NCBI GenBank assembly: GCA_003136595.1 | Contig: PLEY01000187.1 | Span: 27,758-68,939 of the forward strand | Origin: Burkholderiales bacterium | GTDB taxonomy: Bacteria; Pseudomonadota; Gammaproteobacteria; Burkholderiales; Burkholderiaceae_D | Length of the DNA: 41,182 nt | Reading direction: 5' to 3' | In this document: piece after piece, positions 4,289 through 40,460 of the stretch | How the letters are laid out: each line of letters begins with the position of its first letter | Position numbering within the stretch: position 1 is the first letter of the stretch | Notes under the pieces: generated by a model | What the model was told of the DNA's origin: nothing | The model's input: only the letters and a program-made list of their open reading frames with translations | Databases searched by the model: none | Made by a program: the position numbers and the translations under genes

Positions 4289-4353
4289 CCCAAGGTCAAA
4301 CTTTCGAACTACTGCATCCAGCGACTGCGTAAGACGCAGGCTTCCGGATGACT

Positions 4354-10183: not shown

Positions 10184-10210
10184 CGGGCCGTCCTGCGTGC
10201 GCGGGGGCGC

Positions 10211-10750: not shown

Positions 10751-10974
10751 ACTGCAGCGGCCTTCACGTCTCGCGCGGCTGGCTGGTCTTGGCACTCGTC
10801 CTGCCGGCCTGCGCCGGCTGCGGGACCGTCATCGCGGCGGCCGATACCGTGGGAACAGTGGCCGTGGGGGCGGCGGGACTTGCGGCTGATGCGGCCATCG
10901 GCACGGCGCGGGTGGCCGGCAAGGTGATCGGCCGGGCGACCGATGCCGTGCTCGACGACACTCCCAGCCACTAG
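10747..10974 (+). CDS. Small alanine/glycine-rich lipoprotein
   Basis: A 75-residue protein with an N-terminal signal segment (WLVLALVLPACAGCG) holding two possible lipidation cysteines, about residues 21 and 24. The mature part is a run of small residues with repeated AADTVGTVAVGAAGLAADA-like spacing, likely helical and amphipathic. Short lipoproteins of this look are common in proteobacteria, and their function is unknown to me. The start overlaps the acetyltransferase stop (ATGA), which argues that it is really translated. Confidence 0.6.
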   Translation: MNCSGLHVSRGWLVLALVLPACAGCGTVIAAADTVGTVAVGAAGLAADAAIGTARVAGKVIGRATDAVLDDTPSH

Positions 10975-10985
10975 GCGCCCGGTCC

Positions 10986-11540
10986 ATGTCCAGCGGCGAC
11001 GACTACCGCTTCTGCCCGCGCTGCGCGACCCCCTTGGTGGAGCGGGAGCATGCCGGGCGCAAGCGCAGCCTGTGCGCGGCCTGCGGCTGGGTGCATTGGG
11101 ACAATCCGCTGCCGGTGCTGGCCGCGCTGGTCGAGTACGAGGGCCGGATCCTTCTGGCGCGTAACGCCGCCTGGGTGGAGGGTATGTTCGCGCTCATCAC
11201 CGGTTTCATGGAGCGTGGCGAGACACCCGAGGCGGGTGTGGCGCGCGAACTCAAGGAAGAGACCAGCCTGGACGTCGTGCGCGCCGATCTCATCGGCGTC
11301 TACGAATTCACCCGCAAGAACGAATTGATCATCGCCTATCACGTGGAGGCGACCGGGACGGTACAATTGAGTGAGGAGTTGGTCGACTACCGGCTGGTTG
11401 AGCCTGAGCGCTTGAAGCCCTGGAGGACGGGCACCGGTCTGGCCATGGCAGATTGGATGCGCGCGCGCAATCTGCCGGTGGATTTCATCGATCTACCGGC
11501 CCGTATCGCCCGGCCCGCAGCCGGGGGCGGGCAAGCCTAG
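10986..11540 (+). CDS. Zinc-ribbon Nudix hydrolase
   Basis: A Nudix pyrophosphohydrolase of 184 residues. The Nudix box is GFMERGETPEAGVARELKEE with SL replacing the usual G-U end. Four cysteines in two pairs (FCPRC, LCAAC) form an N-terminal zinc ribbon. This fusion is seen in NudC-like and in many uncharacterised Nudix proteins. The protein lacks the large N-terminal domain of E. coli NudC, so an NADH or ADP-ribose type substrate is only a guess. It starts 11 bases after the lipoprotein stop, in the same plus-strand run. Confidence 0.85.
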   Translation: MSSGDDYRFCPRCATPLVEREHAGRKRSLCAACGWVHWDNPLPVLAALVEYEGRILLARNAAWVEGMFALITGFMERGETPEAGVARELKEETSLDVVRADLIGVYEFTRKNELIIAYHVEATGTVQLSEELVDYRLVEPERLKPWRTGTGLAMADWMRARNLPVDFIDLPARIARPAAGGGQA

Positions 11541-11562
11541 CGCAAGCACAAGGGACAAAGAC

Positions 11563-11799
11563 ATGCCGGTGATTGAGTTTGACAAGGAAGTCGATGCCAC
11601 CGGGCTCAATTGCCCGCTGCCCATTCTGCGCGCCAAGAAGGCCCTGTCCGACATGGAAAAAGGCCAGGTGCTCAAGGTGATCTCGACCGATCCGGGATCG
11701 GTGCGGGACTTCCAGGCTTTCGCCCGACAGACGGGCAATGAGCTGCTGAAGCAGGTGGAGGCCGAGGGCGGCTGGGTGCACGTGCTGCGGCGCCGCTAG
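11563..11799 (+). CDS. TusA-like sulfur carrier protein
   Basis: A 78-residue TusA-family protein (SirA-like fold). The hallmark Cys-Pro motif is present as GLNCPLPILRAKKAL near residue 17; that cysteine carries the persulfide in TusA. The family relays sulfur to tRNA thiolation (via TusBCD/E and MnmA) or to dissimilatory sulfur oxidation. mnmA lies 16 kb away here, and no dsr or hdr genes are in the window, so either role is possible. The last gene of the plus-strand run; it faces valS tail to tail. Confidence 0.9.
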   Translation: MPVIEFDKEVDATGLNCPLPILRAKKALSDMEKGQVLKVISTDPGSVRDFQAFARQTGNELLKQVEAEGGWVHVLRRR

Positions 11800-11823
11800 C
11801 CGCCCGCGGCCACCTCGTTCCGG

Positions 11824-14664: not shown

Positions 14665-15263
14665 GCGGCGGACATCGTTTCGGTGGGACGGGTTGTTCCA
14701 TTCTAAAGGAGAACCCCGCCCTGCCAAAGGCGCCGGTGTCTCTCGGGGTGCCTGCCGAGGCGCCTGAGCGCAGCGGCTGCGCCCGGAGCGGCGGCTTTGC
14801 GCAATGCGGCTGTAGAGCGATCCGCATGCGGAGGCGAATTAAGATCGTGCAGCACCAAAGACGGCGCTCGATCCCGAAAATGGCACCAAGGTGTCATGGC
14901 AGGCATCCTTGTGGCCTGTGAGAATACACAAGGTCCGGACGCCCGATAACGGAGCGAACGCCGTGGCTGCCGCCCGCGGACTCTCTCCGGCTCGGGGCTG
15001 GATGGCCCAGTGCGGCCACTGACCCGCGGCGATGAAGCAGAGGCACGAAGGCGCGCGGGCGCTTCGGTCCGCGCAAGATCGAACGGGTCTGATGCAGGGT
15101 CGAGGGGAGGACGCCGAAGGCCGCTGCTGGCAGGGTCTGCGGCATGGCGGCAGGCCAGCGGGCCCGTATCGATCGAAGGCCCGTTGATCGAGAAATTGAG
15201 TATCCGGGTATCCGGATATCCGGGTAAGTACTTGAGCATCTGAGTTGGCTTGATTCGAAAGGG
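14665..15263. other. Gene-poor intergenic region between valS and the LuxR-type gene
   Basis: About 600 bases from which valS and the LuxR-like gene are transcribed outward. The ORFs listed here are in-frame shadows without family motifs. The only clear structure is the TATCCGGG repeat near 15200. No promoter with both hexamers could be picked with confidence. The length is unusual next to the tightly packed genes around it, so a decayed gene or a small RNA could be present unseen. Confidence 0.4.
15201..15226. repeat. Three tandem 8-base units TATCCGGG/A
   Basis: TATCCGGG, TATCCGGA and TATCCGGG follow each other without gaps. The junction forms the palindrome TATCCGGATA. The array ends about 40 bases before the LuxR-type start, a place suited to an operator. 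Confidence 0.6.
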
Positions 15264-16853
15264 GTGCGCGTCCAGGCAACAAGCCAAAGTCCCGATAGCC
15301 CAGCTGTCGGCGCTCTGCCTCCCCGGGCAGGTTACGGGGTCTGTCGCGCGAATCGGATGAGTGGAACGAACAGGGCGGACGCTGCACGGGGCGCGACGCG
15401 CGACTCTGGCCGGACCCATGAGATCGAGGCCGGAGGACGCCTTGCCTTGCGCGAGCGCTGGGTGGGCGCCGCCGAAGCGGCGCTGGATTTGCGGACCGCG
15501 CGTCATTTCATGGAGTGGCTGCACAAGTTCGTGCAGCCGGTACTGCAGTTCCAGATGGTCGCGTGTGGGACGGGACTGTTTGCCCCGCGCACGGTGCAGA
15601 TGGACCGCCTCCTTGTGCGCGGATTCCCGCGCCAGACCATCGAGGCGTGGCGCAATCCGCACGGCGTGATCGTCCTGCCGCGTGCGGTGAGGCGCCGGGA
15701 CGGGCTTGTGTATCCGGTCGAATTCAGAGTCCCGAGGCAGGGATCGACCCGGGGCGGCCCACCGGGTCCTGAGGGGGCCGCAGGGCCGACGGGCCGTCTG
15801 GCGGCGCTCGACCGGGTCGAGATCGGCTGCGGGATCGGCAGCTATTTCCTGTTCGGCAGCTTCGGGCAGGCGCCCGGTCCCGAGCAGCACTATCTGGCGG
15901 CCATCCTGGCACCGATCCTTCACGCCGTCCTGACGCAGACCCTGAATGCCGATGTGCGCCTGCGTCCTCCGGCGCCTCTCGGCGTGCACCTGACCCGCCG
16001 CGAACTGGAACTGCTCCACGAACTGGTCGCCGGGCACACCTCGCAGCAGATCGCCGCGGCGAGCCAGCGCAGCCGGCACACGGTCAAGAACCAGATCCGT
16101 GCCATCCTCATCAAGCTCGAGGCGCGCAACCGGCCCGAGGCGATCGCGACCGCCCTGGGGCTTGGACTCATCCGGCTGCAGCGGCGTCCTGCGCCGACCC
16201 ATATCGTGGCCGCGCAGCCCCGCGCACGCTATATCGTGTCAGGGAGCGCGACTCGGATGACGAAAGCAGACGGGAGCATGGTCGTTGACCACTCCGACCG
16301 CCTGCAGGTAGGCATAGACAATCGTCGAGCCGACGAAACGAAAGCCGGCTCTCTTCAGATCCTTCGAGATCCGGTCGGACAACGGGGTCGTGGCCGGAGC
16401 GCCCGTCGCGGCGGCCCAGTCCCCGAGAACCGGTTGGTCGGCCACGTAGGACCAGAGGAAGCGGTCAAGACCACCGACCGCCTCGCACAGGACGAGATAG
16501 GCGCGGGCATTGGCGATGGCTGCGGCGATCTTCAGGCGGTTGCGGATGATCCCGGGATCGGCAAGCAGGCGTGCGACCTTGCGTTGGTCGTAGCGTGCAA
16601 TCCGCTCGGCGTCCCAGTTGTCGAACACCTCGCGGTAGTGGGCACGCTTGTTCAGTACCGTCTCCCAGCTCAATCCCGCCTGGGCACCCTCGAGGTTCAG
16701 CATTTCGAAGAGTTGCCGTTCCTCATGGCACGGCTGGCCCCATTCGCTGTCGTGGTAGGCCACATAGAGGGGATTGGCAAGGTTGACCCACCGGCAGCGC
16801 CCGACCCCGGCGGCGATGGACCCTCCGCCCTGCCCGCGTGTCAGCATGCCTAG
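15264..16853 (+). CDS. LuxR-type (EpsA-like) regulator with a read-through C-terminus
   Basis: Residues about 70-230 resemble the N-terminal half of the EpsA-like exopolysaccharide regulators (HFMEWLHKFVQPVLQFQM, YFLFGSFGQAPGPEQHYLA). Residues about 240-305 are a LuxR helix-turn-helix (LTRRELELLHELVAGHTSQQ, HTVKNQIRAILIKLEARNRP). Homology should end near base 16200, but no stop codon occurs there. The frame stays open to 16853, antisense to the whole of tag. Those last 210 or so residues look like a shadow. Either the stop was lost or a small frameshift exists near 16200. The start is uncertain (GTG 15264 or ATG 15357, neither with a good Shine-Dalgarno). EpsA proteins usually accompany EpsH/XrtB exosortase loci; none is seen here. 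Confidence 0.65.
   Translation: MRVQATSQSPDSPAVGALPPRAGYGVCRANRMSGTNRADAARGATRDSGRTHEIEAGGRLALRERWVGAAEAALDLRTARHFMEWLHKFVQPVLQFQMVACGTGLFAPRTVQMDRLLVRGFPRQTIEAWRNPHGVIVLPRAVRRRDGLVYPVEFRVPRQGSTRGGPPGPEGAAGPTGRLAALDRVEIGCGIGSYFLFGSFGQAPGPEQHYLAAILAPILHAVLTQTLNADVRLRPPAPLGVHLTRRELELLHELVAGHTSQQIAAASQRSRHTVKNQIRAILIKLEARNRPEAIATALGLGLIRLQRRPAPTHIVAAQPRARYIVSGSATRMTKADGSMVVDHSDRLQVGIDNRRADETKAGSLQILRDPVGQRGRGRSARRGGPVPENRLVGHVGPEEAVKTTDRLAQDEIGAGIGDGCGDLQAVADDPGIGKQACDLALVVACNPLGVPVVEHLAVVGTLVQYRLPAQSRLGTLEVQHFEELPFLMARLAPFAVVVGHIEGIGKVDPPAAPDPGGDGPSALPACQHA
16239..16847 (-). CDS. tag: DNA-3-methyladenine glycosylase I
   Basis: Excises 3-methyladenine from alkylated DNA to begin base-excision repair. 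The signature RCRWVNLANPLYVAYHDSEW near residue 17 holds the first two zinc ligands (Cys and His). The other two are in VNDHAPVCFRH at the C-terminus. The helix-hairpin-helix region is also present (GLSWETVLNKRAHYREVF). At 202 residues it is close to E. coli Tag (187), with a slightly longer N-terminus. The ATG overlaps no gene, but the preceding gene ends three bases upstream, so it is probably cotranscribed with pepA-holC. The whole gene is overlapped on the other strand by the run-on LuxR frame. Conserved zinc ligands argue that this strand is the real one. Confidence 0.93.
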   Translation of the reverse strand: MLTRGQGGGSIAAGVGRCRWVNLANPLYVAYHDSEWGQPCHEERQLFEMLNLEGAQAGLSWETVLNKRAHYREVFDNWDAERIARYDQRKVARLLADPGIIRNRLKIAAAIANARAYLVLCEAVGGLDRFLWSYVADQPVLGDWAAATGAPATTPLSDRISKDLKRAGFRFVGSTIVYAYLQAVGVVNDHAPVCFRHPSRAP

Positions 16854-17281
16854 AGTTTCTGTGCGCGGATCCGGGAGATCTCCTGTGCGACCGCCCTCTG
16901 CACGACATCGCGCAGGGCCTCGCGTACCGAGACCTTCAGGTCTGCATGCAGTCCGGCGAGCGATTTTTCGAGACCCTGGGCAACCGTTTCTCGTAGCCGC
17001 TGATCGATGGTGCTTTCGATGCGGCCCTGCAGGTTCTTCAGGACCCGCTCGTAGACCTCGTTCTCGACAGCGGCCCAGGGCGAACCCGGCAGCGCTCGTT
17101 CGACGGCCGAACCCCCGGGGCCCGGTGCCGTGCGCATGCCGCTTGTCATCCCCATGGGCGCAAGCGCCGGAGTCGGGAGCGGGGGCGCGGGAGCCGTCAC
17201 GCCAGTGGGCAATTGCCCGGGCACCAGAATGTCCGTGAGGACGGGCAATTCGTCGGCCGCATTGTTGGTCGTAGGGCTCAA
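16850..17281 (-). CDS. DUF2486-like protein downstream of holC
   Basis: A 143-residue protein of unknown function. The N-terminus has the ELPVLTDILVPG pattern I associate with betaproteobacterial DUF2486 proteins encoded next to holC. A proline-rich linker follows, then a long charged helix (about residues 80-143) that may form a coiled coil. I moved the start from the track's 17344 to TTG 17281. It overlaps the holC stop as TTGA and has CCGGAG seven bases upstream. No enzymatic motif is visible. Confidence 0.7.
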   Translation of the reverse strand: MSPTTNNAADELPVLTDILVPGQLPTGVTAPAPPLPTPALAPMGMTSGMRTAPGPGGSAVERALPGSPWAAVENEVYERVLKNLQGRIESTIDQRLRETVAQGLEKSLAGLHADLKVSVREALRDVVQRAVAQEISRIRAQKL

Positions 17282-17706
17282 GCGCGTGCTCCGGTGATGT
17301 CGAAAGATGTCAGGGCGTAGCCCCGTTCCTTGTAGAACTTCCAACGCTGCCGGGCCGCCTGCCTGTCCTCGTCAGCGCTCGTGACCACTTCGATGAGTCG
17401 CTCGAAACGGCTGAAGAACTCGCAGCAGTCCGTATCGAGATTCACCAGGACCTCGTGGTGGAGAGGCACCTCGTTTTCACGCGTGAGGAGAATCGGCGTC
17501 TCCGCAGCCAGGGGATCGCTCGCGAAGCAGTGCGGCAGGAAGTCCTGCGTCGAAAAGCTCCACAATTGCCGGTCGAGTTCGGTGAGCAGTCCCTGATCGC
17601 GCCCGAAAATGACGAGCCTGCTTCCGGCTGCGTGCGCCTTGCGGGCGAGGCGGCAGGTGTAGGCGACCTTGTCGGACGCGTTGAAGTGGAAATCGATCCG
17701 GGTCAT
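17278..17706 (-). CDS. holC: DNA polymerase III chi subunit
   Basis: Chi links the clamp-loader complex to single-strand DNA-binding protein at the replication fork. The 142-residue protein begins MTRIDFHFN and holds the HolC pattern (ACRLARKAHAAGSRLVIFG-like region, then LDRQLWSFSTQDFLPH). I use ATG 17706; the track's 385-residue frame extends antisense-like into pepA without family sense. Position between pepA and the DUF2486-like gene is the usual proteobacterial arrangement. Confidence 0.9.
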   Translation of the reverse strand: MTRIDFHFNASDKVAYTCRLARKAHAAGSRLVIFGRDQGLLTELDRQLWSFSTQDFLPHCFASDPLAAETPILLTRENEVPLHHEVLVNLDTDCCEFFSRFERLIEVVTSADEDRQAARQRWKFYKERGYALTSFDITGARA

Positions 17707-17819
17707 GGACGAAGTCCTGGACGCAGTCCCGCACCTGGCGCTGACTCGGAGTGCTGCATCGAGGTGTCCGATCCGGCGTCGATCGCCACGGGGCTTGTCC
17801 TTGAGATTCCAGATTCCCG

Positions 17820-19301
17820 CTAGTGTGCCCGATTCTTCAGGAATTCCGTGAGAAGCGGTACCGGGCGACCCGAACCTCCCTTGGCGGTGCCGCTCTTCCA
17901 GGCGGTCCCTGCGATGTCCAGATGCGCCCAGGTATAGGCCTTGGTGAAGCGCCACAGGAAGCACGCAGCCGAGATCGCCCCACCGGCCCTGCCACCGATG
18001 TTCGCCATGTCCGCAAAGTTGGACTTCAGCAGGTCCTGATACTCCTCCTCGACCGGCAGGCGCCAGGCGGGATCCGCCGCGCGCCGGCCCGCCCCGAGCA
18101 GTTCCTCGGCAAGCGCATCGTCCGGAGAGAACAGGCCCGAGTTGACATGTCCGAGCGCCACCACGCAGGCGCCCGTCAGCGTCGCGATGTCGATGACGGC
18201 GGCCGGTTTGAAGCGTGCCGCGTAGGTGAGCGCATCGCACAGGATGAGGCGACCCTCGGCATCGGTGTTGAGGATCTCGATGGTCTGGCCCGACATGCTG
18301 GTCACGATGTCGCCCGGTTTGATGGCGACGCCCGAGGGCATGTTCTCGCAGGTGGGGATGATCCCGACAACATTGATCTTCAGCCCGAGTTCTGCAATCG
18401 CCCGCAGCGTGCCGAGGACCGAGGCCGCACCGCACATGTCGTATTTCATCTCGTCCATCGCCTCGCCGGGCTTCAGCGAGATGCCGCCGGAGTCGAACGT
18501 GATGCCCTTGCCGACCAGCGCGATCGGGGCGTCCTTGGCGGCCGCACCCTCATAGTGGAGCACGATGAGCTTCGGGGGTTGTTCCGAACCCTGTGCGACG
18601 GCGAGGAACGATCCCATCTTGAGCGCCTGCATCTGTTTGCGCTCGAGCACCTCGACCTTCATCTTCCAGTCGCGACCGAGCTTCTTTGCGGTGGTGGCAA
18701 GATAGGTCGGCGTGCAGATGTTGCCGGGCAGGTTGCCAAGCGTCTTGGTCAGTTCGACCCCGTTGGCGAGCGCCGAGCCCTCGGCGAGCCCCGCCTGGGT
18801 CTCCTTAGTCGAGGCCTTGTCAACCGGGAAGACGATGCGCTCGAGCCGGATCGGGTCTTCCTTCTTGCTCTTGAGTTCATCGAAGCGGTAGGCGAACTCA
18901 CGCGCAAGGAGCACGGCGGTGCGCACGTTCTCGGCGAGACTGCGATTCGGGACCGCCGCTTCGGCGAGCGTGAAGGTCAGCTCCACCGCGCCGCTTGCGC
19001 CGACGCCACGCAGCGCCGCACGCACGGCTTCAGCATAGGCCTTGTCGTTGAATTCAGCCTGTTTGCCAAGACCCACGAGGAGCACGCGCTCGGCCTGAAC
19101 ACCGGCTAAGCCTGTCAGCAGCGTTGCGCTACCGCGCACGCCGCGCTGGTCGCCACGCTTGATCGCCTTGGTGAGACTGCCCTGCGACGCCGCGTCGATG
19201 GTGCTGCCAGCGGGGGTCAGCTTCGCATCACTGTAGACACCAACCACAATGCAGGAGGTCTTGAGTTTTTCCGGGGATCCTGCTTTTGTGCTAAATTCCA
19301 T
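17820..19301 (-). CDS. pepA: Leucyl aminopeptidase (M17)
   Basis: A cytosolic, hexameric, two-metal aminopeptidase that removes N-terminal residues in peptide turnover; in E. coli PepA is also a DNA-binding factor. The M17 signature [14 protein letters not shown] is present, with metal ligands in [17 protein letters not shown] and the [10 protein letters not shown] block. The length (493) is normal, and ATG 19301 begins with [11 protein letters not shown]. It is divergent from lptF across 117 bases, as in E. coli. Confidence 0.96.
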
Positions 19302-19418
19302 TGAGTTTCCAAAGAAGACGATGTGTCCGCGGATTATCTTTGATGCGCGACCCGTAAGTCAAAGCTTGCAGCCCGTCTTCGCATTTCCGGGACAGACCCC
19401 CAACCGAAGCGCGGGCCT

Positions 19419-20534
19419 ATGATCTTCAAACGCTCGCTGGTGCGTGAACTGGCCAACGCAGCCAGCGCCATATTCATCACGCTGCTCACAATCGTGCTGA
19501 CTTTTGCGCTGGTGCGCCTGTTGGGCCAGGCGGCATCGGGACAGGTCGCCAACGAGTCCGTGCTTGCGCTCATCACGTTTGCGGCGCTGAACAATCTGCC
19601 AGTCCTGCTGCAGTTGACCGTTTTCATCTCGATACTGCTGGCCTTCACGCGCAGCTACCGCGATTCCGAGATGGTGGTCTGGCTTTCCGCAGGACTCGGA
19701 CTCACGCGCTGGCTTGGACCGGTGTTCCGCTTCACCGCACCCGTCGCCGCGATGGTCGCCGTCCTGTCGCTCCTCGTGACGCCCTGGGCGAACCGGCAGT
19801 CGAGCGAATTCCGCGCACGCTTTGAACAGCGCACCGACGTCGCCCGCGTCGCACCCGGCCAGTTTCGCGAGTCGGCCGATGGCGACAAGGTCTATTTCAT
19901 CGAGGGCTACACCGGTGACCGGGGCACCGTGGGTAACATCTTCGTGAGCTCCCTGCAGCACGGCCGGCTCGGCGTCATGGTTTCCCAGACCGGCAACATC
20001 GAACATGCGCCGAACGGCGACGAGTTCCTCGTGATGCGCAATGGCCGCCGCTATGAAGGCACGCCGGGTCAGAGCGACTACAAGGTCATGTCCTTCGATC
20101 GCTATGGCGTACGCATCGAATCCCAGCCGGTGGATTTCAATACCGACGACTCCATGAAAATCCGCTCGACGCTTGAGCTGATCGCCCTGCAGTCGCCACG
20201 CGCCCTGGGTGAACTGGTCTGGCGCATCGGCCTGCCGCTTTCGGTATTCTGTCTCGCGCTCCTCGCGATACCGCTGTCGTTCGTCAATCCGCGGGCTGGA
20301 CGTTCGGCCAATCTCATGATCGCGCTGCTGGTCTACTTCACCTACACCAACGGCCTGACGCTGGTCCAGAACTACACGACTCAGGGGCGCCTCGGATTTC
20401 CGGTGGCCTGGTGGCTGGTGCATGTGATCGTGCTGTGCATCGCCCTGTTCATGCTCGACTGGCGTAACCGGCTGCATCGGCCCTGGCGCGCGTGGCTTGC
20501 CCTGACCATGGCGCGCTGGCGGCAAGCGCAATGA
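19419..20534 (+). CDS. lptF: LPS export permease LptF
   Basis: Inner-membrane subunit of the LptB2FG transporter that extracts lipopolysaccharide from the inner membrane. The 371-residue protein has three N-terminal and three C-terminal membrane helices around a periplasmic beta-jellyroll (residues about 125-265), as in the family. The start is IFKRSLVRELANAASAIFIT, and NNLPVLLQLTVFISILL and RSYRDSEMVVWLSAGLG are typical. It ends in an ATGA overlap with lptG. Confidence 0.94.
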   Translation: MIFKRSLVRELANAASAIFITLLTIVLTFALVRLLGQAASGQVANESVLALITFAALNNLPVLLQLTVFISILLAFTRSYRDSEMVVWLSAGLGLTRWLGPVFRFTAPVAAMVAVLSLLVTPWANRQSSEFRARFEQRTDVARVAPGQFRESADGDKVYFIEGYTGDRGTVGNIFVSSLQHGRLGVMVSQTGNIEHAPNGDEFLVMRNGRRYEGTPGQSDYKVMSFDRYGVRIESQPVDFNTDDSMKIRSTLELIALQSPRALGELVWRIGLPLSVFCLALLAIPLSFVNPRAGRSANLMIALLVYFTYTNGLTLVQNYTTQGRLGFPVAWWLVHVIVLCIALFMLDWRNRLHRPWRAWLALTMARWRQAQ

Positions 20535-31936: not shown

Positions 31937-33586
31937 CTAGGCACGACCGTCGCGCAGCATCTCGCGCGCAGCGTTGCGTCCCGGAATCCCGGTCACACCG
32001 CCACCAGGGTGCGCCCCGGCCCCGCACAGATACAGGCCCTTAAGCGGCGTGCGATAGTCCGCATAACCCAGGATCGGACGCGCCGAGAACAGCTGGTCGA
32101 GAGCGAGAACGCCGTGGAAGATGTCGCCATGGGTCAGGCCGAACTTGCGTTCCAGATCGAGCGGCGTGTGGATCTGGCGCGCCACGATGAGTGAGGCGAA
32201 GTTGGGCGCAAAGCGGGTCACGGTGGCAATCGCTGCGTCGGCGGCCGCCTCGCGCGCGCCATCCCAGCCGCCAGGATGGCGGGTGGCATCAAGATCCGGG
32301 TCGAAGTGCTGGCAGAACAGGCTCGCCACATGCTGACCAGGCGGTGCCAGGCTCGGGTCTACGGTGCTTGGAATCAGGATCTCGACGACCGGCTCGCGGC
32401 TCCATCCGAACTCGCGCGCATCCGCCCAGGCGCGCTCCATGTAGGCCAGCGAGGGGGCGAGGATGATCCCCGAGGCGTGGTGGGGTGCGGCGCTTGTGCC
32501 GGGCAGGGCGCTGAAATCAGGCAGGCCCGAGAGCGCGACATTCATGCGCAGTGTCCCCGAGCCACTGCGGTACTGTCCGATGCGCGCACGAAACGCTGCC
32601 GGCAGATGCTCGGCGCCCACGAGCTTCTCAAAGAGCACAGTCGGGGTGACATTGGCCGCGACGCGTCCGGCAAAGAATTCGCTGCCGTCCTCGAGGCGGA
32701 CCCCGACGGCCCGGCCGTCTTCGACGAGCACGTGGGCCACGGGAGCGTCGACCGAGAGCAGGACCCCGCGCCGGCGCGCCTCGGTTGCCATCGCCTCGGT
32801 GATGGCGCCCATGCCGCCGAGTGCGTGGCCCCAGATACCTGGCTTGCCGTTGACGCCTCCGAACACATGGTGCAGCAGCACGTACGCCGAGCCCGCCGCA
32901 TAGGGACTGGCGTAGTTTCCGACGATCGAATCGAAGCCGAGCGTGGCCTTCAGTGCCGCCGATTCGAACCATCCGTCGAGCAGGTCGCCGGCGCTGCGTG
33001 CGAAGAGCGCGAGCAGGTCGCGCTTGTCCTCGAGATTCACGTGGGCGAGCTGGCGGCCAAGGCGCAAGCCGGCGATCCAGTCGCGCAGCGAGGCGAGACC
33101 CCGCGCGCCCACGTTCGGCGGCGTCCGGGCGAGCAGTGTGCGCAACAGCGTGACGGCGCGCTCGAGCATCGCGTAATACTGCGGAAGGCGCTCTGCGTCA
33201 CGGCGGGAGAACTTCGCGACCTCCCTTTGCGTCTCCTCGAGCGAGCCCCCGAGCTTGAGAAAGCGACCGTCGGGCAGCGGTACGAAATTCGAGAAGGGGC
33301 GCTCGACAATCCGCAGTCCATGCTCGGCGAGATGCAGGTCACGGATCACGTCAGGATCCAGCAGGCTCACGGTGTAGCTTGCGGTGGAATTGCGAAAGCC
33401 GGGCGCGAATTCCTCCGTCACGGCGGCGCCACCCAGCACGCTGCGGCGCTCCAGCACCCGGACCGACCAGCCGCGTGCGGCCAGATCGCAGGCGCATACC
33501 AGCCCGTTATGGCCGCCGCCGATGACGATCGCGTCGGTGCGCGTTGGGGCGGCGCCTGGGTCGGGCAACAATTGGTGCGGGCTCAC
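31937..33586 (-). CDS. PYROXD2-like FAD-dependent oxidoreductase (phytoene-desaturase superfamily)
   Basis: A flavin-dependent amine-oxidase-type protein of about 549 residues. The FAD motif AIVIGGGHNGLVCACDLAA and ERRSVLGGAAVTEE are at the start. The C-terminus YLCGAGAHPGGGVTGIPGRN is nearly the pattern of human PYROXD2 and its bacterial relatives. The superfamily includes carotenoid desaturases, but this subgroup has no clear biochemical role. I start at GTG 33586 (VSPHQLL); the track's 33709 adds a basic, proline-rich stretch. Neither has a Shine-Dalgarno. Confidence 0.8.
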   Translation of the reverse strand: MSPHQLLPDPGAAPTRTDAIVIGGGHNGLVCACDLAARGWSVRVLERRSVLGGAAVTEEFAPGFRNSTASYTVSLLDPDVIRDLHLAEHGLRIVERPFSNFVPLPDGRFLKLGGSLEETQREVAKFSRRDAERLPQYYAMLERAVTLLRTLLARTPPNVGARGLASLRDWIAGLRLGRQLAHVNLEDKRDLLALFARSAGDLLDGWFESAALKATLGFDSIVGNYASPYAAGSAYVLLHHVFGGVNGKPGIWGHALGGMGAITEAMATEARRRGVLLSVDAPVAHVLVEDGRAVGVRLEDGSEFFAGRVAANVTPTVLFEKLVGAEHLPAAFRARIGQYRSGSGTLRMNVALSGLPDFSALPGTSAAPHHASGIILAPSLAYMERAWADAREFGWSREPVVEILIPSTVDPSLAPPGQHVASLFCQHFDPDLDATRHPGGWDGAREAAADAAIATVTRFAPNFASLIVARQIHTPLDLERKFGLTHGDIFHGVLALDQLFSARPILGYADYRTPLKGLYLCGAGAHPGGGVTGIPGRNAAREMLRDGRA

Positions 33587-33736
33587 TGGGGCGGGAACGG
33601 AAAAGGGAGGGGTGACAGCGGGTGGCGGACGGCGCGGGCCCGGATGGACACGGCAGGCGCGGCCGCAACGCCTGATGGTACACGAGCCCCGGTGATGGGT
33701 CCAAAGCATCCCGCCTGCGTGTCCGAGCGTTGGGAC

Positions 33737-34465
33737 TTAGCGCGCGAGGAGCCCGATCAGAAGTGGCGTCATGGCCGCCGTCAGAAGGCCGTTCAGACCC
33801 ATCGCGAGTCCGGCGAAAGCGCCCATCTCCTCGCTGACCTGGAAAGCGCGCGCGGTGCCGATGCCGTGGGCGGCACAGCCGAGCGCGAAGCCGCGGATCC
33901 AGTGGGCATCGATGCGCAGCAAGCCGACCAGCAGAGGACGCGCCATCATCGCACCGGATATGCCGGTCAGGATGACAAGGACTGCCGTGAGCGAGGGCAG
34001 CCCGCCGATCTTCTCGGAGATCCCCATGGCGATCGGCGTGGTCACCGACTTGGGCGCGAGCGAGAGGATCGTCAAGCGCGAGGCGCCTAGCAGATAGGCA
34101 CAGGCGACGCCTGAGCCGATCGCGGTCACCGCCCCCGCCGCAAGACCTGCGAGGAGCGGCAGGGCGAGCCGTCGCAAGCGCTCCCATTGGAGGTAGAGCG
34201 GCACGCCCAGGGCGACGGTCGCGGGTCCCAGCAGGAAGTGCACGAATTGCGCACCCGAGAAATAGGTCGAGTAGGGCGTATGGGTGAGCCAGAGAATCGC
34301 CACCAGGAGCGCCACGGCCATCGCTACCGGATTGGCGAGGGGGCTAAAACCGCTGCGCGCGTAGACGAGGTAGGCAAGCTGGTAGGCGAGCAGAGTGATG
34401 GTGAGGCCGAGGAGCGGCGTGGCCGCAAGATAGACCCAGATCTGGTTGAGCTGGGGTGTGATCAT
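33737..34465 (-). CDS. lrgB: LrgB/CidB-family membrane protein
   Basis: A 242-residue polytopic protein with the LrgB hallmarks LAPKSVTTPIAMGISEKIGG and HGIGTARAFQVSEEMGAFAGL. LrgB and LrgA form a small-molecule permease in several species: pyruvate in Bacillus subtilis PftAB, glycolate and glycerate in plant PLGG1. The start is ATG 34465; the track's 34591 adds a charged shadow. Its ATG overlaps the lrgA stop (ATGA). It is the last gene of the glycolate-oxidase block, so a glycolate or lactate transporter is the simplest proposal; that is inference. Confidence 0.9.
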   Translation of the reverse strand: MITPQLNQIWVYLAATPLLGLTITLLAYQLAYLVYARSGFSPLANPVAMAVALLVAILWLTHTPYSTYFSGAQFVHFLLGPATVALGVPLYLQWERLRRLALPLLAGLAAGAVTAIGSGVACAYLLGASRLTILSLAPKSVTTPIAMGISEKIGGLPSLTAVLVILTGISGAMMARPLLVGLLRIDAHWIRGFALGCAAHGIGTARAFQVSEEMGAFAGLAMGLNGLLTAAMTPLLIGLLAR

Positions 34466-34836
34466 TCTTCCCTCGCCCGCCGGGCTGCGCTGCGGCTCTC
34501 GATCCAAGCGTTGACCTTCTTGACCGTCAGGGCCGTCACCACCAGCGTGAGCGCCGTGCTGGTCAGGATCGCGACGACGATCGGCAGCCACTCGTCGCGG
34601 ACCCGGTCTGCGTAGAGCATGATACCCACCCCGGCCGGGACGAACAGTAAGGAGAGATGGCGCAACAGTTCCTGGGCGGTGCCCTTGAGCTCTTCAACTT
34701 CGCCCGGTCGGCTAAGGAGATAGGCGACCAAGAGCACCATCCCGAAAACCGGTCCGGGGATCGGGATGCCAAGGCCAAAGGAGATCGATTCGCCCAGCAG
34801 CTGGAAGACGAGCAGCGTGGTCAGGGCACGGATCAT
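34462..34836 (-). CDS. lrgA: LrgA/CidA-family membrane protein
   Basis: A 124-residue protein with four membrane segments, partner of LrgB. Landmarks are GLGIPIPGPVFGMVLLVAYL and RHLSLLFVPAGVGIMLYADR, both classic LrgA blocks. The ATG at 34836 overlaps the glcF stop as ATGA. The C-terminal RSAARRAREE tail is cytoplasmic by the positive-inside rule. The track places it in a long shared frame (34462-35889), most of which is a glcF shadow. Confidence 0.9.
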   Translation of the reverse strand: MIRALTTLLVFQLLGESISFGLGIPIPGPVFGMVLLVAYLLSRPGEVEELKGTAQELLRHLSLLFVPAGVGIMLYADRVRDEWLPIVVAILTSTALTLVVTALTVKKVNAWIESRSAARRAREE

Positions 34837-36119
34837 GCGCGGTCTTGGAGGCTCGCGGCCCGGTCTGGCGGTGCGGCCGGGGCACTGGCAAGGTGTGCAT
34901 CCACGAGTTCGATCCAGTGCCCGATGGGCGTGGTGGTGCCGCTTTGCAGGTGCGTGAGGCATCCGATGTTGGCCGAGACGAAGCGTTCGGCGCCGGTGGC
35001 CTCGAGAGCCCGCAGCTTGTTGTCGCGCAGCTGCCGCGAAAGCTTCGGCTGCAGGACCGAATAGGTGCCTGCCGATCCGCAGCATAGATGGCTGTCCGCG
35101 CAGAGCCTGACCTCGATCCCGAGCGACTTCAAGAGATCCTCGACCACGCCTTGGATTTTCTGGCCGTGCTGCAGCGTGCAGGGGGGATGAAAGGCGACGC
35201 GCCCAGCCTGACTGCGGGCCTTGGACCCGAGCCCGGCGAGAGCCGGACCCTCGGCGGCGAGCACCTCGCAGAGATCGCGTGCGGCGCTCGCGACGCGCTG
35301 GGCGGCCTCTGCGTACCCGGGATCGTCGCGCAGCAGATTGCCATAGTCCTTGACCTGTACCGCGCAGCCCGAGGCATTGACGATCAGCGCTTCGGCGCCC
35401 GCGTCCAAAAGCGGGATCCAGGCGTCGATGTTGCGACGCATCTCGACCTTCGAGCCGGCCTCGTCCTCCAGGTGATGGCGCAACGCCCCGCAGCAGCCGC
35501 TCGACGGCGCCTCCAGCACCTCGATGCCGAGCGCGTCCAGGACCCGGGCGCTCGCCGCGTTGATGTTCGGTGCGAGCGCCGGCTGCACGCAGCCCGTAAG
35601 CAGGATCATCTTGCGCGCGTGCGTGCGCCGCGGTCGCACGCCACTGGCCTGGCGGGGGGGGATCTTGTCTTTCAGGGCTGCCGGCAGAAGAGGCCTGAAC
35701 AGGCGGCCTGCGGCGAGCGCGGGCCCGAACCAGGCCCGCCGCGTGAGGCCCTCGCGCAGGAGGTGGCGCAGGACCCGCTCGCGCCAGGGCCGCTGTGCGC
35801 CCACCTGGTGCTCGACGACCTGTCGGCCGATCTCGAGCAGCCGTCCATAGCGAACGCCGGACGGGCAAGTCGTCTCGCAGTTGCGACACGTCAGGCAGCG
35901 GTCGAGGTGCTGCTGCGTGCGGGTGGTGGCGCGGGTGCCCTCGAGGACCTGCTTTATCAGATAGATGCGTCCGCGCGGTCCGTCGAGCTCATCGCCCAGC
36001 AGCTGGTAGGTCGGGCAGGTCGCGGTGCAGAATCCGCAGTGCACACAGGCGCGCAGGATCGAATCGGCCTCGGCCCCCTCGGCGCTGTTGCGGATGAAAT
36101 CAGCCAGATGGGTTTCCAT
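34833..36119 (-). CDS. glcF: Glycolate oxidase iron-sulfur subunit
   Basis: Carries electrons from the GlcD/GlcE flavin subunits toward the membrane quinone pool. The 428-residue protein has two 4Fe-4S motifs (CVHCGFCTATCPTY and CLTCRNCETTCPSG) and two CCG domains (SSGCCGALRHHLE and LCCGSAGTYSVLQ). Starts METHLADF at ATG 36119, 61 bases after glcE. It overlaps lrgA. Confidence 0.95.
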   Translation of the reverse strand: METHLADFIRNSAEGAEADSILRACVHCGFCTATCPTYQLLGDELDGPRGRIYLIKQVLEGTRATTRTQQHLDRCLTCRNCETTCPSGVRYGRLLEIGRQVVEHQVGAQRPWRERVLRHLLREGLTRRAWFGPALAAGRLFRPLLPAALKDKIPPRQASGVRPRRTHARKMILLTGCVQPALAPNINAASARVLDALGIEVLEAPSSGCCGALRHHLEDEAGSKVEMRRNIDAWIPLLDAGAEALIVNASGCAVQVKDYGNLLRDDPGYAEAAQRVASAARDLCEVLAAEGPALAGLGSKARSQAGRVAFHPPCTLQHGQKIQGVVEDLLKSLGIEVRLCADSHLCCGSAGTYSVLQPKLSRQLRDNKLRALEATGAERFVSANIGCLTHLQSGTTTPIGHWIELVDAHLASAPAAPPDRAASLQDRA

Positions 36120-36180
36120 GGGGGCTCAGGGTGCGCTCGGTGAGGAAAGGATGCTGCCTGGCATCGGCACCCGCAGGGAC

Positions 36181-37260
36181 TCAAGCCGCATCGACACGCC
36201 CCTGGTTGAAAATGCCCTGCGGATCGAAGGCCGCCTTCAGGCGGCCTTCGATGGCGGCGACGCTCGCGCTGCGGCGCGTGAAGACTCCGGATCTGGCCTT
36301 GTCTTCAGGGCTGGCCCGAAACAGGGTCGCATGCCCGCCCAGTTGCGCGCTGGCGGCGCGGATCACAGTGCCAGGCAGATCGCTCGTCAGCCAGCGCAGG
36401 GTGCCGCCCCATTCGAAGCACTGCGTCCCGGCGAGCTCGAGGGGAGGCCTGCCTGCAGGCAGGGTGATTCTCCAGAGCGGGCCGGGCGCGGCGAAGGCGG
36501 CAGCGCGCTGGTCGCGCACATCAGCCCAGAGGGCATCGGCCTGCGTCGGCGCGAGCACCTCGCCGCCCAGACTCGCGGCCGCTGCCCGCACCGGCGCCAG
36601 TGAGCCCGACAGGCGCACTGCGAGCGTACCCGCGCTCCATGCCGTGGCGCTGATCGGTAGCGGCCGCCCGGCCCACCCCGTGACACGCTCCAGAGCGGCA
36701 GCCTCTTCAAGCGCAAAGCAGTGTGTGGCCGAGGTCTGTGGCCGGGGTAGAACCTTCAGTGAGACCTCGAGGATCACCCCGAGGGTTCCCAGCGAGCCCG
36801 CCAGGGTCCGTGCGACATCAAAGCCCGCCACGTTCTTCATGACCTGTCCGCCAAAGCGCAGGACCTGTCCCCGGCCGTCGAGCAGCTGCGCCCCCAGGAC
36901 GAAATCGCGCAGGCCACCGCGCGCCTGGCGCGCCGGACCTGACAGGCCGCAGGCCACCACGCCGCCGAGCGTCGTGCCCCCGCTGAACTGGGGTGGCTCG
37001 AACGGCAGGAACTGGCCGGAGCTGGCGAGTCTCGCCTCGAGATCGGCCAGCAGCGTGCCGGCCCGGGCCGTCACCACCAGTTCGCTTGGGCTATAGGCCA
37101 GGATACCCGCGAGGCTGCGCGTATCCAGTATCTCGCCGCGTAACTCGCGGCCATAGAAGTCCTTGGTACCGCCGCCGCGGATGCGCAGCGCGCGTCGTGC
37201 CGCTGCGGCCTCACGGACCTGCTCGACCAGGAGGTCGACTCCTGCAAGGTTGCCCGTCAT
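36181..37260 (-). CDS. glcE: Glycolate oxidase FAD-binding subunit GlcE
   Basis: Second FAD-type subunit of glycolate oxidase, 359 residues. The FAD_binding_4 motifs are LRIRGGGTKDFYGRE, SGGTTLGGVVACGLSGPARQ and VLRFGGQVMKNVAGFDVARTL-like. The last is typical of GlcE. It starts at ATG 37260, five bases after the glcD stop; the track's 37509 lies in glcD. The C-terminus DPQGIFNQGR is the usual ending. Confidence 0.94.
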   Translation of the reverse strand: MTGNLAGVDLLVEQVREAAAARRALRIRGGGTKDFYGRELRGEILDTRSLAGILAYSPSELVVTARAGTLLADLEARLASSGQFLPFEPPQFSGGTTLGGVVACGLSGPARQARGGLRDFVLGAQLLDGRGQVLRFGGQVMKNVAGFDVARTLAGSLGTLGVILEVSLKVLPRPQTSATHCFALEEAAALERVTGWAGRPLPISATAWSAGTLAVRLSGSLAPVRAAAASLGGEVLAPTQADALWADVRDQRAAAFAAPGPLWRITLPAGRPPLELAGTQCFEWGGTLRWLTSDLPGTVIRAASAQLGGHATLFRASPEDKARSGVFTRRSASVAAIEGRLKAAFDPQGIFNQGRVDAA

Positions 37261-37265
37261 CACCT

Positions 37266-38783
37266 TCAGAAGCGTTCCAGATCGGAGAAGGGCACGCGAC
37301 CGTGATGCACCTTCATGGCGCCGTATTCGGCGCAGCGATGCGGGGTCGGGATCAGCTTGTCGGGGTTCAAGAGGCCCGCGCGATCGAAACAGCGCTTCAG
37401 GCTGGCAAAGGCATCCAGCTCGGGCCGGCCGAACTGGACGCACATCTGGTTGATCTTCTCGATGCCCACGCCGTGCTCGCCGGTGATGGTGCCGCCCATC
37501 GCGATGCACAGCTCGAGGATCTCGGCGCCAAACGCGTCGGCCCGCTCGAGCTCGCCCGGCTGGTTGGCGTCAAAGAGGATGAGCGGGTGCAGATTGCCAT
37601 CGCCGGCATGAAACACGTTCATGCAGCGCAGTGCGTAGCGCTCTTCCATCAGGGCGATGGCGCGCAGCACCTCGCCGACCCGGCTGCGCGGGATCGTGCC
37701 GTCCATGCAATAGTAGTCCGGCGAGACGCGCCCGGCTGCCGGGAAGGCGTTCTTGCGTCCGGCCCAGAAGCGCAGACGCTCAGCCTCGTTCTCCGAGACC
37801 TGGCAGCGCGTCGCTCCGGCTGCCTTGAGCACGGCCTCGATGTGCGCGATCTCGTCTTCGACCTCTTCGGGCGTGCCATCGGACTCGGCGAGCAGGATCG
37901 CCTCGGCGTCCACATCGTAGCCCGCCTTGACGAAGGGTTCCACCGCACGGGTGGCGGCTTTGTCCATCATTTCGAGGCCTGCCGGGATGATGCCGGCTGC
38001 GATGATGCTGGCGACCGCGTTGCTCGCGGCCTCGACGTCATCGAACGAGGCCATGACGACGCGCGCGAGCACCGGTTTCGGGATCAGCTTGACCGTCACC
38101 TCGGTGACGACCAGCAGCATGCCCTCCGAGCCGATCACGAGCGAGAGCAGGTCAAGGCCCGGCGTATCGGGCGCCGCCGACCCCAGCTCGACGATCTCGC
38201 CCTCGCTGGTCACACCGCGTACCGCGAGGACGTTGTGGACGGTCAGTCCGTACTTCAGGCAGTGCACGCCGCCCGAGTTCTCGGCGACGTTGCCCCCGAT
38301 GGTGCAGGCGATCTGCGAGGATGGATCGGGTGCGTAGTACAGACCATGCTCCCGGGCGACATCTGAGATCGCCAGATTGCGCACCCCGGGTTGAACACGC
38401 GCCGTGCACGCCCTCGCATCGAGCTCGACGATCCGGTTCAGGCGCGCGAGGCTTAGCACCACGCCGCGCGCGTGCGGCATGGCACCGCCCGACAGACCGG
38501 TGCCCGCGCCGCGCGCCACCACCGGCAGCCTGTGCTCGTGGCAGATCCTAAGCGTAGCCACGACCTCGTCCTCGGTCTCAGGCAGGACGACGGCCAGAGG
38601 CAGCTCCCGGTACATGGTCAGGCCATCGCACTCGTAGGGCCGGGTGTCCTCCTCTGCAACGAGCACCGCGTGGGTGGGGAGACTCGCCTGCAGAGCGGCA
38701 AGGGCGCGCTCGAGGCTCAGGCGCTCAAGGTTCGGGGGGGTGTCCGCTGCGCGCTCGTGCGGAATCTCGTGTGGGGCGTTCAT
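37266..38783 (-). CDS. glcD: Glycolate oxidase catalytic subunit GlcD
   Basis: FAD-linked subunit that oxidises glycolate to glyoxylate, and in some species D-lactate, 505 residues. Motifs: VVARGAGTGLSGGAMPH, IACTIGGNVAENSGGVHCLK, and the catalytic HAGDGNLHPLILFD and TGEHGVGIEKINQM. I use ATG 38783 (MNAPHE); the track's 38792 is a TTG three codons upstream. First gene of glcD-glcE-glcF-lrgA-lrgB. Confidence 0.95.
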   Translation of the reverse strand: MNAPHEIPHERAADTPPNLERLSLERALAALQASLPTHAVLVAEEDTRPYECDGLTMYRELPLAVVLPETEDEVVATLRICHEHRLPVVARGAGTGLSGGAMPHARGVVLSLARLNRIVELDARACTARVQPGVRNLAISDVAREHGLYYAPDPSSQIACTIGGNVAENSGGVHCLKYGLTVHNVLAVRGVTSEGEIVELGSAAPDTPGLDLLSLVIGSEGMLLVVTEVTVKLIPKPVLARVVMASFDDVEAASNAVASIIAAGIIPAGLEMMDKAATRAVEPFVKAGYDVDAEAILLAESDGTPEEVEDEIAHIEAVLKAAGATRCQVSENEAERLRFWAGRKNAFPAAGRVSPDYYCMDGTIPRSRVGEVLRAIALMEERYALRCMNVFHAGDGNLHPLILFDANQPGELERADAFGAEILELCIAMGGTITGEHGVGIEKINQMCVQFGRPELDAFASLKRCFDRAGLLNPDKLIPTPHRCAEYGAMKVHHGRVPFSDLERF

Positions 38784-38921: not shown

Positions 38922-40337
38922 CTAGTCGAGCGCCACGATCTTGCCCGGATTCAGCAGGTTCTTCGGATCGAAGGCCCGCTTTAGCGAGCGCATCAGGTCG
39001 AGCGCATCCTCACCATGCTCCTCCCTCAGGAAGTCCATCTTGTGCAGGCCCACGCCGTGCTCGCCGGTGCAGGTTCCGTCCATCTGGATGGCGCGCGAGA
39101 CCATGCGCTGGTTGATGGCCTCGGCTTCCTCGTGATCCTCGGGCCGCTCGGGATCGACGAGCAGCATCACATGGTAGTTGCCGTCGCCGACGTGTCCGAC
39201 GATCATCGAGGGCAGGCGCGAGGCATCAAGTTCCTCGGTGGTCGTGCGGATGCTCTCGGCCAGGCGGGAAATCGGCACGCACACGTCGGTGGTGATGGCG
39301 CGTGTGCCGGCTTTCATCTGCAGTCCGGCGAAATAGGCATTGTGGCGCGCCGTCCAGAGCTTCGTGCGGTCCTCGGGATTGGTGGCCCACTGGAAGTCCA
39401 TGCCCCCGAATTCCTGGGTGATGGCCTGGACCCCTTCGGCCTGCTCGCGTACGCCGGCCGGAGAGCCGTGGAATTCGAAGAGCAGCAAGGGGGTCTCGTG
39501 CAGGCCGAGCTTGCTGTGCGCGTTCAGGGCCTTCACGCATGCGGCGTCGAGAAACTCGACACGGGCGACCGGGATGCCCATCTGGATCGTGGCAATCACG
39601 CTCTCGACAGCCGCCTCGACGCTCGGAAAGTTGCAAACGGCCGCCGAGATCGCCTCCGGCTGCGGATAGAGCCGCACCGTGACCTCGGTGATGATGCCAA
39701 GCGTCCCCTCGCTGCCTACGAAGAGGCGCGTCAGATCGTAGCCCGCCGACGACTTGCGCGCCCGCCGCGCAGTCCTGACGACCTTGCCGGCGGCGGTGAC
39801 CACCGTGAGCGCGATCACGTTCTCACGCATCGTCCCATAGCGTACGGCGTTGGTGCCCGAGGCGCGGGTCGCGCTCATGCCGCCAAGGGAAGCGTCGGCA
39901 CCGGGGTCGATCGGAAAGAAGAGGCCCGTGTCCTTGATGGCCTGATTGAGTTGCTTGCGGGTGACGCCCGCCTCGACGGTTGCGGTCAGATCCTCCGGAT
40001 TGATCGCAAGGATGGCGCTCATCTGCGACACGTCCAGACTGATCCCTCCGGTCACGGCGAGCAGATGACCCTCGAGGGAGGAGCCCGATCCGTAGGCAAT
40101 GAGGGGTACCTCATAGGTGTCGCAGAGTTGCATGGTGGCGACCACGTCATCGGTGCTGCGGGCGAAGACGACCGCATCGGGGAGCATCGGCTGGTAGGCC
40201 GATTCGTCACGCCCGTGATGCTCGCGCACGGCAAGCTTGGTGGAGAAACGCTCGCCGAAGCGCTCTGCGAGGGCGGCGAGGAAGGCTTCCGGAAGCGGCC
40301 GCCTGAGGGCGACGGTGTCTGGTGCGGGATGGTTCAC
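38922..40337 (-). CDS. FAD-linked oxidase, D-lactate dehydrogenase (cytochrome) type
   Basis: A 471-residue relative of GlcD, close to mitochondrial LDHD. The FAD site is [21 protein letters not shown], with [20 protein letters not shown], and the C-terminal [14 protein letters not shown] and [16 protein letters not shown] carry the active-site histidines. I chose GTG 40337 because GGGGAG lies eight bases upstream; ATG 40376 lacks one. It is separate from glcD by 138 bases and may share its transcript. Its promoter region is shared with the broken bchE on the other strand. Confidence 0.9.
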
Positions 40338-40460
40338 GGAGTGGTCTCCCCGGACCCGGGTTGGCGCCGGATCCATCTGTTTTGGCTCTCTAGGCGCTCA
40401 GTGTAAAACGATTCGCCCCTCGACTGCGCGGGCCCTCAGGAAGCGGCAGCCCCGCGCCCC

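What the first reader, a model, noticed from the sequence alone, without database searches (positions are those of the whole stretch)
33737..38783. glcDEF translationally linked to lrgAB: a likely glycolate transport-oxidation operon
glcF, lrgA and lrgB overlap by ATGA, so their products are probably made together. The plant protein PLGG1, an LrgA-LrgB fusion, moves glycolate and glycerate across the chloroplast envelope. The linkage suggests that bacterial LrgAB can serve as a glycolate carrier rather than a murein-hydrolase regulator. In a RuBisCO-bearing autotroph it would handle 2-phosphoglycolate waste.
Basis: partly seen in the sequence, partly recalled or inferred. Interest (0 to 1): 0.7.

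Follow-up and report, generated by a model that had tools for sequence, protein, structure and literature searches.

The report
Glycolate oxidase operon with LrgAB carrier
A bacterial gene cluster that makes the glycolate-oxidising enzyme is directly followed by two genes for a membrane carrier related to the plant chloroplast glycolate transporter; the same arrangement recurs in several related bacterial families, so this carrier probably moves glycolate or similar small acids in or out of the cell, which can be tested in laboratory strains.

Summary
On the minus strand lie a D-lactate-dehydrogenase-type FAD oxidase, then glcD-glcE-glcF-lrgA-lrgB, with 4-base ATGA overlaps at glcF/lrgA and lrgA/lrgB. 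The linkage is not unique. In 250 genomes of the same order it occurs in 5, against about 0.03 expected by chance. Of the 80 nearest lrgB loci elsewhere, 20 carry it (Cupriavidus, Ralstonia, Hydrogenophaga, Noviherbaspirillum, MAGs). A shared flank (gpx-pilU-pilT-yggS-proC) points to one old arrangement with many losses; outside the order, 0 of 60 loci had it. Best reading: LrgAB is a carrier for GlcDEF's substrate, glycolate and perhaps D-lactate or other short 2-hydroxy acids. Substrate and direction are inferred. But the photorespiratory role is weak: linked genomes have RuBisCO no more often than the order does (11/24 against 93/250), lrgB is depleted in RuBisCO-bearing genomes, cytosolic glycolate needs no carrier to reach GlcDEF, and two LldP-type permeases are also encoded. 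LrgB/CidB is already classed as a glycolate/glycerate transporter family because of PLGG1. I found no paper describing this bacterial operon.

The parts
38922..40376 (-). FAD-linked oxidase of the D-lactate dehydrogenase (LDHD) type, upstream gene of the cluster
   Evidence: PF01565+PF02913; best PDB relative mouse LDHD 8jdc, E 2e-149; same position in Cupriavidus/Ralstonia loci
37266..38783 (-). glcD, glycolate dehydrogenase FAD subunit
   Evidence: NF008408 763 bits, below cut-off 897 but full length; best PDB relative 'Glycolate oxidase' 9qgz; ATG at 38783
36181..37260 (-). glcE, second flavin-type subunit
   Evidence: NF008439 468 bits against cut-off 284; 5 bp after the glcD stop
34833..36119 (-). 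glcF, iron-sulfur subunit
   Evidence: NF008434 655 bits against cut-off 333
34462..34836 (-). lrgA, 124-aa membrane protein, partner of LrgB; ATGA overlap with glcF
   Evidence: PF03788 102 bits against cut-off 28; overlap read from sequence
33737..34465 (-). lrgB, 242-aa membrane carrier subunit; ATGA overlap with lrgA
   Evidence: PF04172 259 bits against cut-off 25; AlphaFold model pLDDT 90.8 with two pairs of short helices (87-92/94-99 and 130-136/143-152) around helix 101-125

Best explanation
The five genes glcDEF-lrgAB form one translationally coupled unit, probably together with the LDHD-type oxidase upstream. LrgA and LrgB form a two-subunit membrane carrier in which LrgB holds the transport core. 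It lets glycolate, and probably D-lactate or other short 2-hydroxy monocarboxylates, cross the inner membrane, so that GlcDEF can oxidise them at the cytoplasmic face and pass electrons to quinone. In most carriers of the operon, about half of which lack RuBisCO, this would serve uptake of external glycolate as carbon and electron source. In this phototroph and in the Hydrogenophaga-type autotrophs the same carrier could also release or recapture photorespiratory glycolate. Shown here: gene identities, overlaps, conserved linkage, and a predicted fold consistent with the CPA/AT reentrant-helix-reentrant type. Inferred: substrate, direction, coupling ion, and the LrgA-LrgB complex.
For: ATGA overlaps. 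glcF-lrgA also overlaps by 4 bases in two comamonad loci, and lrgA-lrgB by 4 in nearly all linked loci. Linkage in 5 of 68 genomes with both genes, against 0.034 expected, and in 20 of the 80 nearest lrgB loci. Shared flank gpx-pilU-pilT-yggS-proC in Burkholderiaceae and Oxalobacteraceae and gpx in comamonads, not seen as a block beside unlinked lrgAB. In the window the flank is gone but the core is intact. In 40 unlinked glc loci of the order no transporter recurs downstream of glcF, and LldP/GlcA is never beside the listed glcF genes in 250 genomes. lrgB is single copy in this genome. Most conserved LrgB residues fall in the two reentrant regions. Published: PLGG1 is a plastid glycolate/glycerate carrier with LrgA and LrgB domains (PMC6993116, PMC4368765); LrgB is placed in CPA/AT transporters and listed as LrgB/CidB/GGT (PMC8396727); B. 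subtilis PftAB and S. mutans/S. aureus LrgAB move pyruvate or lactate; C. necator needs glcD-kch-glcE-glcF to grow on glycolate and excretes glycolate when it is deleted, with no carrier named in the passages read (PMC7486775).
Against: No substrate data exist for these proteins. Genome-level co-occurrence of lrgB and glcF equals independence (68 observed, 68.6 expected). The linkage could be inherited position rather than selected, and most relatives have lost it. Two LldP-type permeases are also encoded. An LDHD-type oxidase sits in the cluster, and a GlcF homologue of Phaeobacter serves D-lactate use (PMC11378808). No residue signature separates glc-linked from unlinked LrgB. The fold search found no significant solved match.
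Confidence: 0.6

Rival explanations
1. LrgAB here is mainly a D-lactate and/or pyruvate carrier. GlcDEF and the LDHD-type oxidase oxidise D-lactate, and LrgAB imports lactate or exports the pyruvate formed, like PftAB and the F. nucleatum lct cluster.
For: LDHD-type oxidase in the cluster; characterised bacterial LrgABs move pyruvate/lactate (PMC5626966, PMC12632267); LrgAB lies in a cluster with a D-lactate dehydrogenase in F. nucleatum (PMC12630350); a GlcF homologue is needed for D-lactate use in Phaeobacter (PMC11378808); GlcD is below its curated cut-offs.
Against: The oxidase is not seen upstream in the linked Oxalobacteraceae loci of other genera, so glcEF-lrgAB is the constant core; C. 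necator glcDEF is required for growth on glycolate (PMC7486775).
Confidence: 0.22
2. LrgAB is a photorespiratory device: it manages glycolate derived from RuBisCO's 2-phosphoglycolate.
For: Genome has form I RuBisCO with alpha-carboxysome genes, a second cbb cluster, a phosphoglycolate phosphatase above cut-off and puf/bchZ genes; all 9 comamonad-type linked genomes have RuBisCO.
Against: RuBisCO in 11/24 linked genomes against 93/250 in the order, Fisher p 0.51; lrgB depleted in RuBisCO-bearing genomes of the order (27/104 against 66/146, p 0.002) and in a large survey (PMC7895386); no carrier is needed for cytosolic glycolate.
Confidence: 0.1
3. The adjacency is inherited position: lrgAB came to lie after glcF once, and the two units share a transcript without shared function.
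For: One shared genomic flank; a single clade is not rejected (AU p 0.43); lost in most lineages; no genome-level co-occurrence.
Against: Kept with 4-base overlaps in separate lineages and kept in the window although the flank is gone.
Confidence: 0.15
4. LrgAB is a holin/antiholin-type murein hydrolase regulator.
For: Family name and S. aureus history; CidA/LrgA act as holins in a lysis cassette (PMC8805020, abstract).
Against: Window LrgB is below all three autolysis-model cut-offs (194 against 250; 156 against 267; 123 against 264); metabolic context; carrier fold class.
Confidence: 0.04

Closest known systems
PLGG1 / plastidic glycolate-glycerate translocator (LrgA-LrgB fusion of plants)
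   Same: Same two domains (LrgA PF03788, LrgB PF04172); proposed substrate glycolate; linked to glycolate metabolism
   Different: Fused, plastid envelope, moves glycolate and glycerate; here two separate overlapping genes beside the oxidase. No PLGG1 sequence was available for direct comparison
PftAB (YsbAB) of B. subtilis and LrgAB of S. mutans/S. aureus
   Same: Two-gene LrgAB carrier of short monocarboxylates
   Different: Pyruvate/lactate, LytSR-type regulation, no reported glcDEF linkage
E. coli glc operon with GlcA (LldP family; from general knowledge)
   Same: Glycolate dehydrogenase operon with its own carrier
   Different: The carrier is GlcA of the unrelated lactate permease family; in 250 genomes of this order no LldP gene lies beside a listed glcF
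C. necator glcD-kch-glcE-glcF operon (PMC7486775)
   Same: Same dehydrogenase genes and order; Cupriavidus loci examined here continue into lrgAB
   Different: The window lacks a gene between glcD and glcE; no carrier named in the passages read; C. necator H16 itself was not among my loci
F. nucleatum lct cluster (Ldh-Etf-Bcd with LrgAB, PMC12630350)
   Same: LrgAB in a cluster with a D-2-hydroxyacid dehydrogenase
   Different: D-lactate and butyrate metabolism, ETF-linked

Membership tests
LrgB/CidB family (PF04172; listed as LrgB/CidB/GGT in PMC8396727) | Pfam LrgB domain over the gathering score | tested here: met
   259 bits against 25, 212 of 214 positions
LrgB/CidB family (PF04172; listed as LrgB/CidB/GGT in PMC8396727) | Partner LrgA (PF03788) encoded alongside | tested here: met
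   102 bits against 28, ATGA overlap
LrgB/CidB family (PF04172; listed as LrgB/CidB/GGT in PMC8396727) | Reentrant-helix-reentrant fold of the CPA/AT class | tested here: inconclusive
   Confident model (pLDDT 90.8) with two pairs of short helices around one long helix fits; no significant solved match, weak non-significant hits include ASBT/NTCP/KefC/NapA
LrgB/CidB family (PF04172; listed as LrgB/CidB/GGT in PMC8396727) | Transport of glycolate/glycerate | not testable with these tools
   Needs uptake or liposome assay
CidB/LrgB autolysis modulator (TIGR00659, NF007983, NF003291) | Score over the curated equivalog cut-off | tested here: not met
   194/250, 156/267 and 123/264 bits
Glycolate dehydrogenase GlcDEF | GlcE and GlcF equivalogs over cut-off | tested here: met
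   468 against 284; 655 against 333
Glycolate dehydrogenase GlcDEF | GlcD equivalog over cut-off | tested here: not met
   763 against 897 (NF008408) and 528.5 against 567.9 (TIGR00387), full length; so described as GlcDEF-type, substrate open
Glycolate dehydrogenase GlcDEF | Oxidation of glycolate | not testable with these tools
   Needs enzyme assay
Photorespiratory salvage module | RuBisCO and phosphoglycolate phosphatase in the genome | tested here: met
Photorespiratory salvage module | Linkage associated with RuBisCO across genomes | tested here: not met
   11/24 against 93/250, p 0.51

The most novel reading that the evidence does not exclude
glcDEF-lrgAB encodes a dedicated glycolate carrier and its oxidase in Burkholderiales. 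This LrgAB would be a glycolate route in and out of Cupriavidus and relatives, and glycolate transport would be an established bacterial function of LrgAB, independent of plants and of RuBisCO.
Probability: 0.45. Interest if true: 0.62.

Novelty: new member of a known kind. Interest (0 to 1): 0.42.

Why it matters
LrgAB is still annotated mostly as an autolysis modulator. A conserved operon with glycolate dehydrogenase would assign a metabolic substrate to a branch of the family and give the plant carrier PLGG1 a bacterial functional counterpart. It would also offer a candidate for the glycolate carrier of Cupriavidus, a model CO2-fixing production host that is known to excrete glycolate. It is directly testable by gene deletion.

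Tried and rejected
Specificity signature: comparing 24 glc-linked with 78 unlinked LrgBs gave only lineage-specific differences. Fold search of the LrgB model against PDB: no hit with E below 3. Sequence search of LrgA and LrgB against PDB: none. Single-origin test: AU p 0.43, so neither one clade nor several is shown by the LrgB tree; the GlcF tree follows taxonomy with linked and unlinked intermixed, which together with the shared flank favours an old linkage and many losses. Linkage outside the order: 0 of 60 loci; one non-order locus (L222) has an FAD oxidase and what reads as a P450 before lrgAB. Literature for a bacterial LrgAB-glycolate link: none beyond PLGG1 comparisons and the family name. 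A direct comparison with PLGG1 was not possible because no plant sequence is held.

Full report
What is there. On the minus strand of the window run glcD (37266-38783), glcE (36181-37260), glcF (34833-36119), lrgA (34462-34836) and lrgB (33737-34465). The last three overlap by ATGA at each junction; glcD-glcE and glcE-glcF are separated by 5 and 61 bases. Family scans confirm the proteins, with one caveat: GlcD is full length but below both curated GlcD cut-offs. Its closest solved relative is mammalian D-lactate dehydrogenase LDHD. GlcD's closest is a 'glycolate oxidase'.

Genome context. It has one lrgB. It has a form I RuBisCO gene followed by genes that read as cbbS, csoS2, csoSCA and carboxysome shell genes on contig C55, and a second cbbL-cbbS-cbbX-fbp-prk cluster on C138/C54 (my reading of translations). 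A phosphoglycolate phosphatase is above its curated cut-off. A photosynthetic reaction-centre gene lies beside what reads as bchZ. No glyoxylate carboligase reached its cut-off. Two LldP-type lactate/glycolate permeases are also encoded, one of them in this window at 1758-3431, so LrgAB is not the only candidate carrier.

Is the linkage more than chance? In 250 genomes of the order, lrgB is in 104, glcF in 165 and both in 68, what independence predicts. Yet in 5 genomes (four genera, three families) lrgAB lies right behind glcF, where 0.034 adjacent pairs are expected if two neighbouring slots among about 4000 genes are allowed. A scan of GTDB genomes with the glc-linked LrgBs returned 80 loci, 20 of them with glcF upstream: Cupriavidus, Ralstonia, Hydrogenophaga, Noviherbaspirillum and uncultured relatives. 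In L138 and L141 other sequence separates glcF from lrgA. The 4-base glcF/lrgA overlap is also seen in two comamonad loci; elsewhere the gap is mostly 4-300 bases, with a few longer. The lrgA/lrgB overlap is nearly universal. Outside the order, 0 of 60 lrgAB loci are next to glcDEF.

History. Linked loci in Burkholderiaceae and Oxalobacteraceae share the downstream genes gpx-pilU-pilT-yggS-proC-ubiA, and comamonad loci share gpx. None of the unlinked lrgAB loci has this block. Some relatives have glcF followed directly by yggS-proC, as expected if lrgAB and its neighbours were deleted. The LrgB tree needs five changes of the linked label but does not reject one clade. The GlcF tree follows taxonomy with linked and unlinked forms mixed. 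I conclude that the arrangement is old in this part of the order and was lost often. In the window the flank has gone and the core has stayed. This is mild evidence that the core is kept by selection; inherited position remains a rival.

Is there another carrier for the slot? LldP genes never lie beside a listed glcF in the 250 genomes. In 40 unlinked glc loci the genes behind glcF are varied housekeeping genes and no transporter recurs. lrgAB is therefore the only recurrent carrier tied to glcDEF in this sample.

What LrgAB is. The LrgB model (pLDDT 90.8) has two pairs of short helices (87-92/94-99 and 130-136/143-152) around a single long helix 101-125. These regions and their borders hold many of the nearly invariant residues. 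That agrees with the reentrant-helix-reentrant fold assigned to LrgB within the CPA/AT carriers, where the family is listed as LrgB/CidB holin-like glycolate/glycerate transporter (PMC8396727). The fold search gave no significant match, so this is consistency, not proof. The window LrgB is below all three curated autolysis-modulator cut-offs.

Substrate. For glycolate: the constant partner is glcEF; the plant homologue PLGG1 moves glycolate and glycerate; and C. necator needs the homologous operon for growth on glycolate and excretes glycolate when it is deleted, with no carrier named in the passages I read (PMC7486775). Against certainty: characterised bacterial LrgABs move pyruvate or lactate, an LDHD-type oxidase sits in this cluster, and a GlcF homologue can serve D-lactate use (PMC11378808). 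A carrier of 2-hydroxy monocarboxylates with glycolate as main substrate is my best estimate.

The RuBisCO part of the interpretation. Linked genomes carry true RuBisCO (excluding low-scoring RuBisCO-like matches) in 11 of 24 cases, the order sample in 93 of 250 (p 0.51). All nine comamonad-type linked genomes have it, but only one of ten Cupriavidus/Ralstonia-type genomes does, and the linked Noviherbaspirillum and the two linked same-family genomes do not. lrgB itself is rarer in RuBisCO-bearing genomes of the order (27/104 against 66/146, p 0.002), matching a published survey in which PF04172 is depleted in Calvin-cycle genomes (PMC7895386). Phosphoglycolate-derived glycolate is made in the cytosol where GlcDEF works, so no carrier is needed to oxidise it. 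The operon therefore looks first like a glycolate-use unit; a role in venting or recapturing photorespiratory glycolate in this phototroph is possible but not shown.

Novelty. The family, its link to glycolate through PLGG1 and its carrier fold are known. I found no paper describing the glcDEF-lrgAB operon of Burkholderiales in the open-access library searched. I rate it a new member of a known kind, of moderate interest because it makes the substrate question testable in a standard laboratory organism.

Noticed in passing
window 1758-3431 (+): LldP-type lactate/glycolate permease (PF02652, 544 bits) in the same window, beside genes that read as glpF, glpD and glpK (3440-7409); a second copy on contig C22 (L179).
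   Followed up: partly
L176 (G000:C55) 8316-19716; L177; L178; L304: The genome seems to hold an alpha-carboxysome RuBisCO operon, a second cbb cluster (cbbX, fbp, prk), carotenoid genes and bchZ-puf: a phototrophic Burkholderiales member with carboxysomes.
   Followed up: partly
window 31937-33709 (-): CrtO/phytoene-desaturase-like FAD oxidoreductase starting close behind lrgB on the same strand; it is not in the conserved neighbourhood of other linked loci, function unknown.
   Followed up: no
L138 5377-8541: In Noviherbaspirillum sp. Root189 a 1054-aa protein that I read as a PAS/GGDEF-type sensor is inserted between glcF and lrgA.
   Followed up: no
L124, L125, L130, L131, L136, L142, L144, L158, L162, L168, L038: Many unlinked, mostly Rhodocyclaceae/Azonexaceae-type lrgAB loci have a relative of that sensor protein upstream on the same strand, suggesting a different, signal-regulated context for LrgAB there.
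   Followed up: no
G000: No glyoxylate carboligase above cut-off in this genome, so the fate of glyoxylate from GlcDEF is not the usual glycerate pathway, or the gene lies in an assembly gap.
   Followed up: no
G158 (L040, L291, L292): Cupriavidus sp. 2SB has three glcF genes; only one is linked to lrgAB.
   Followed up: no
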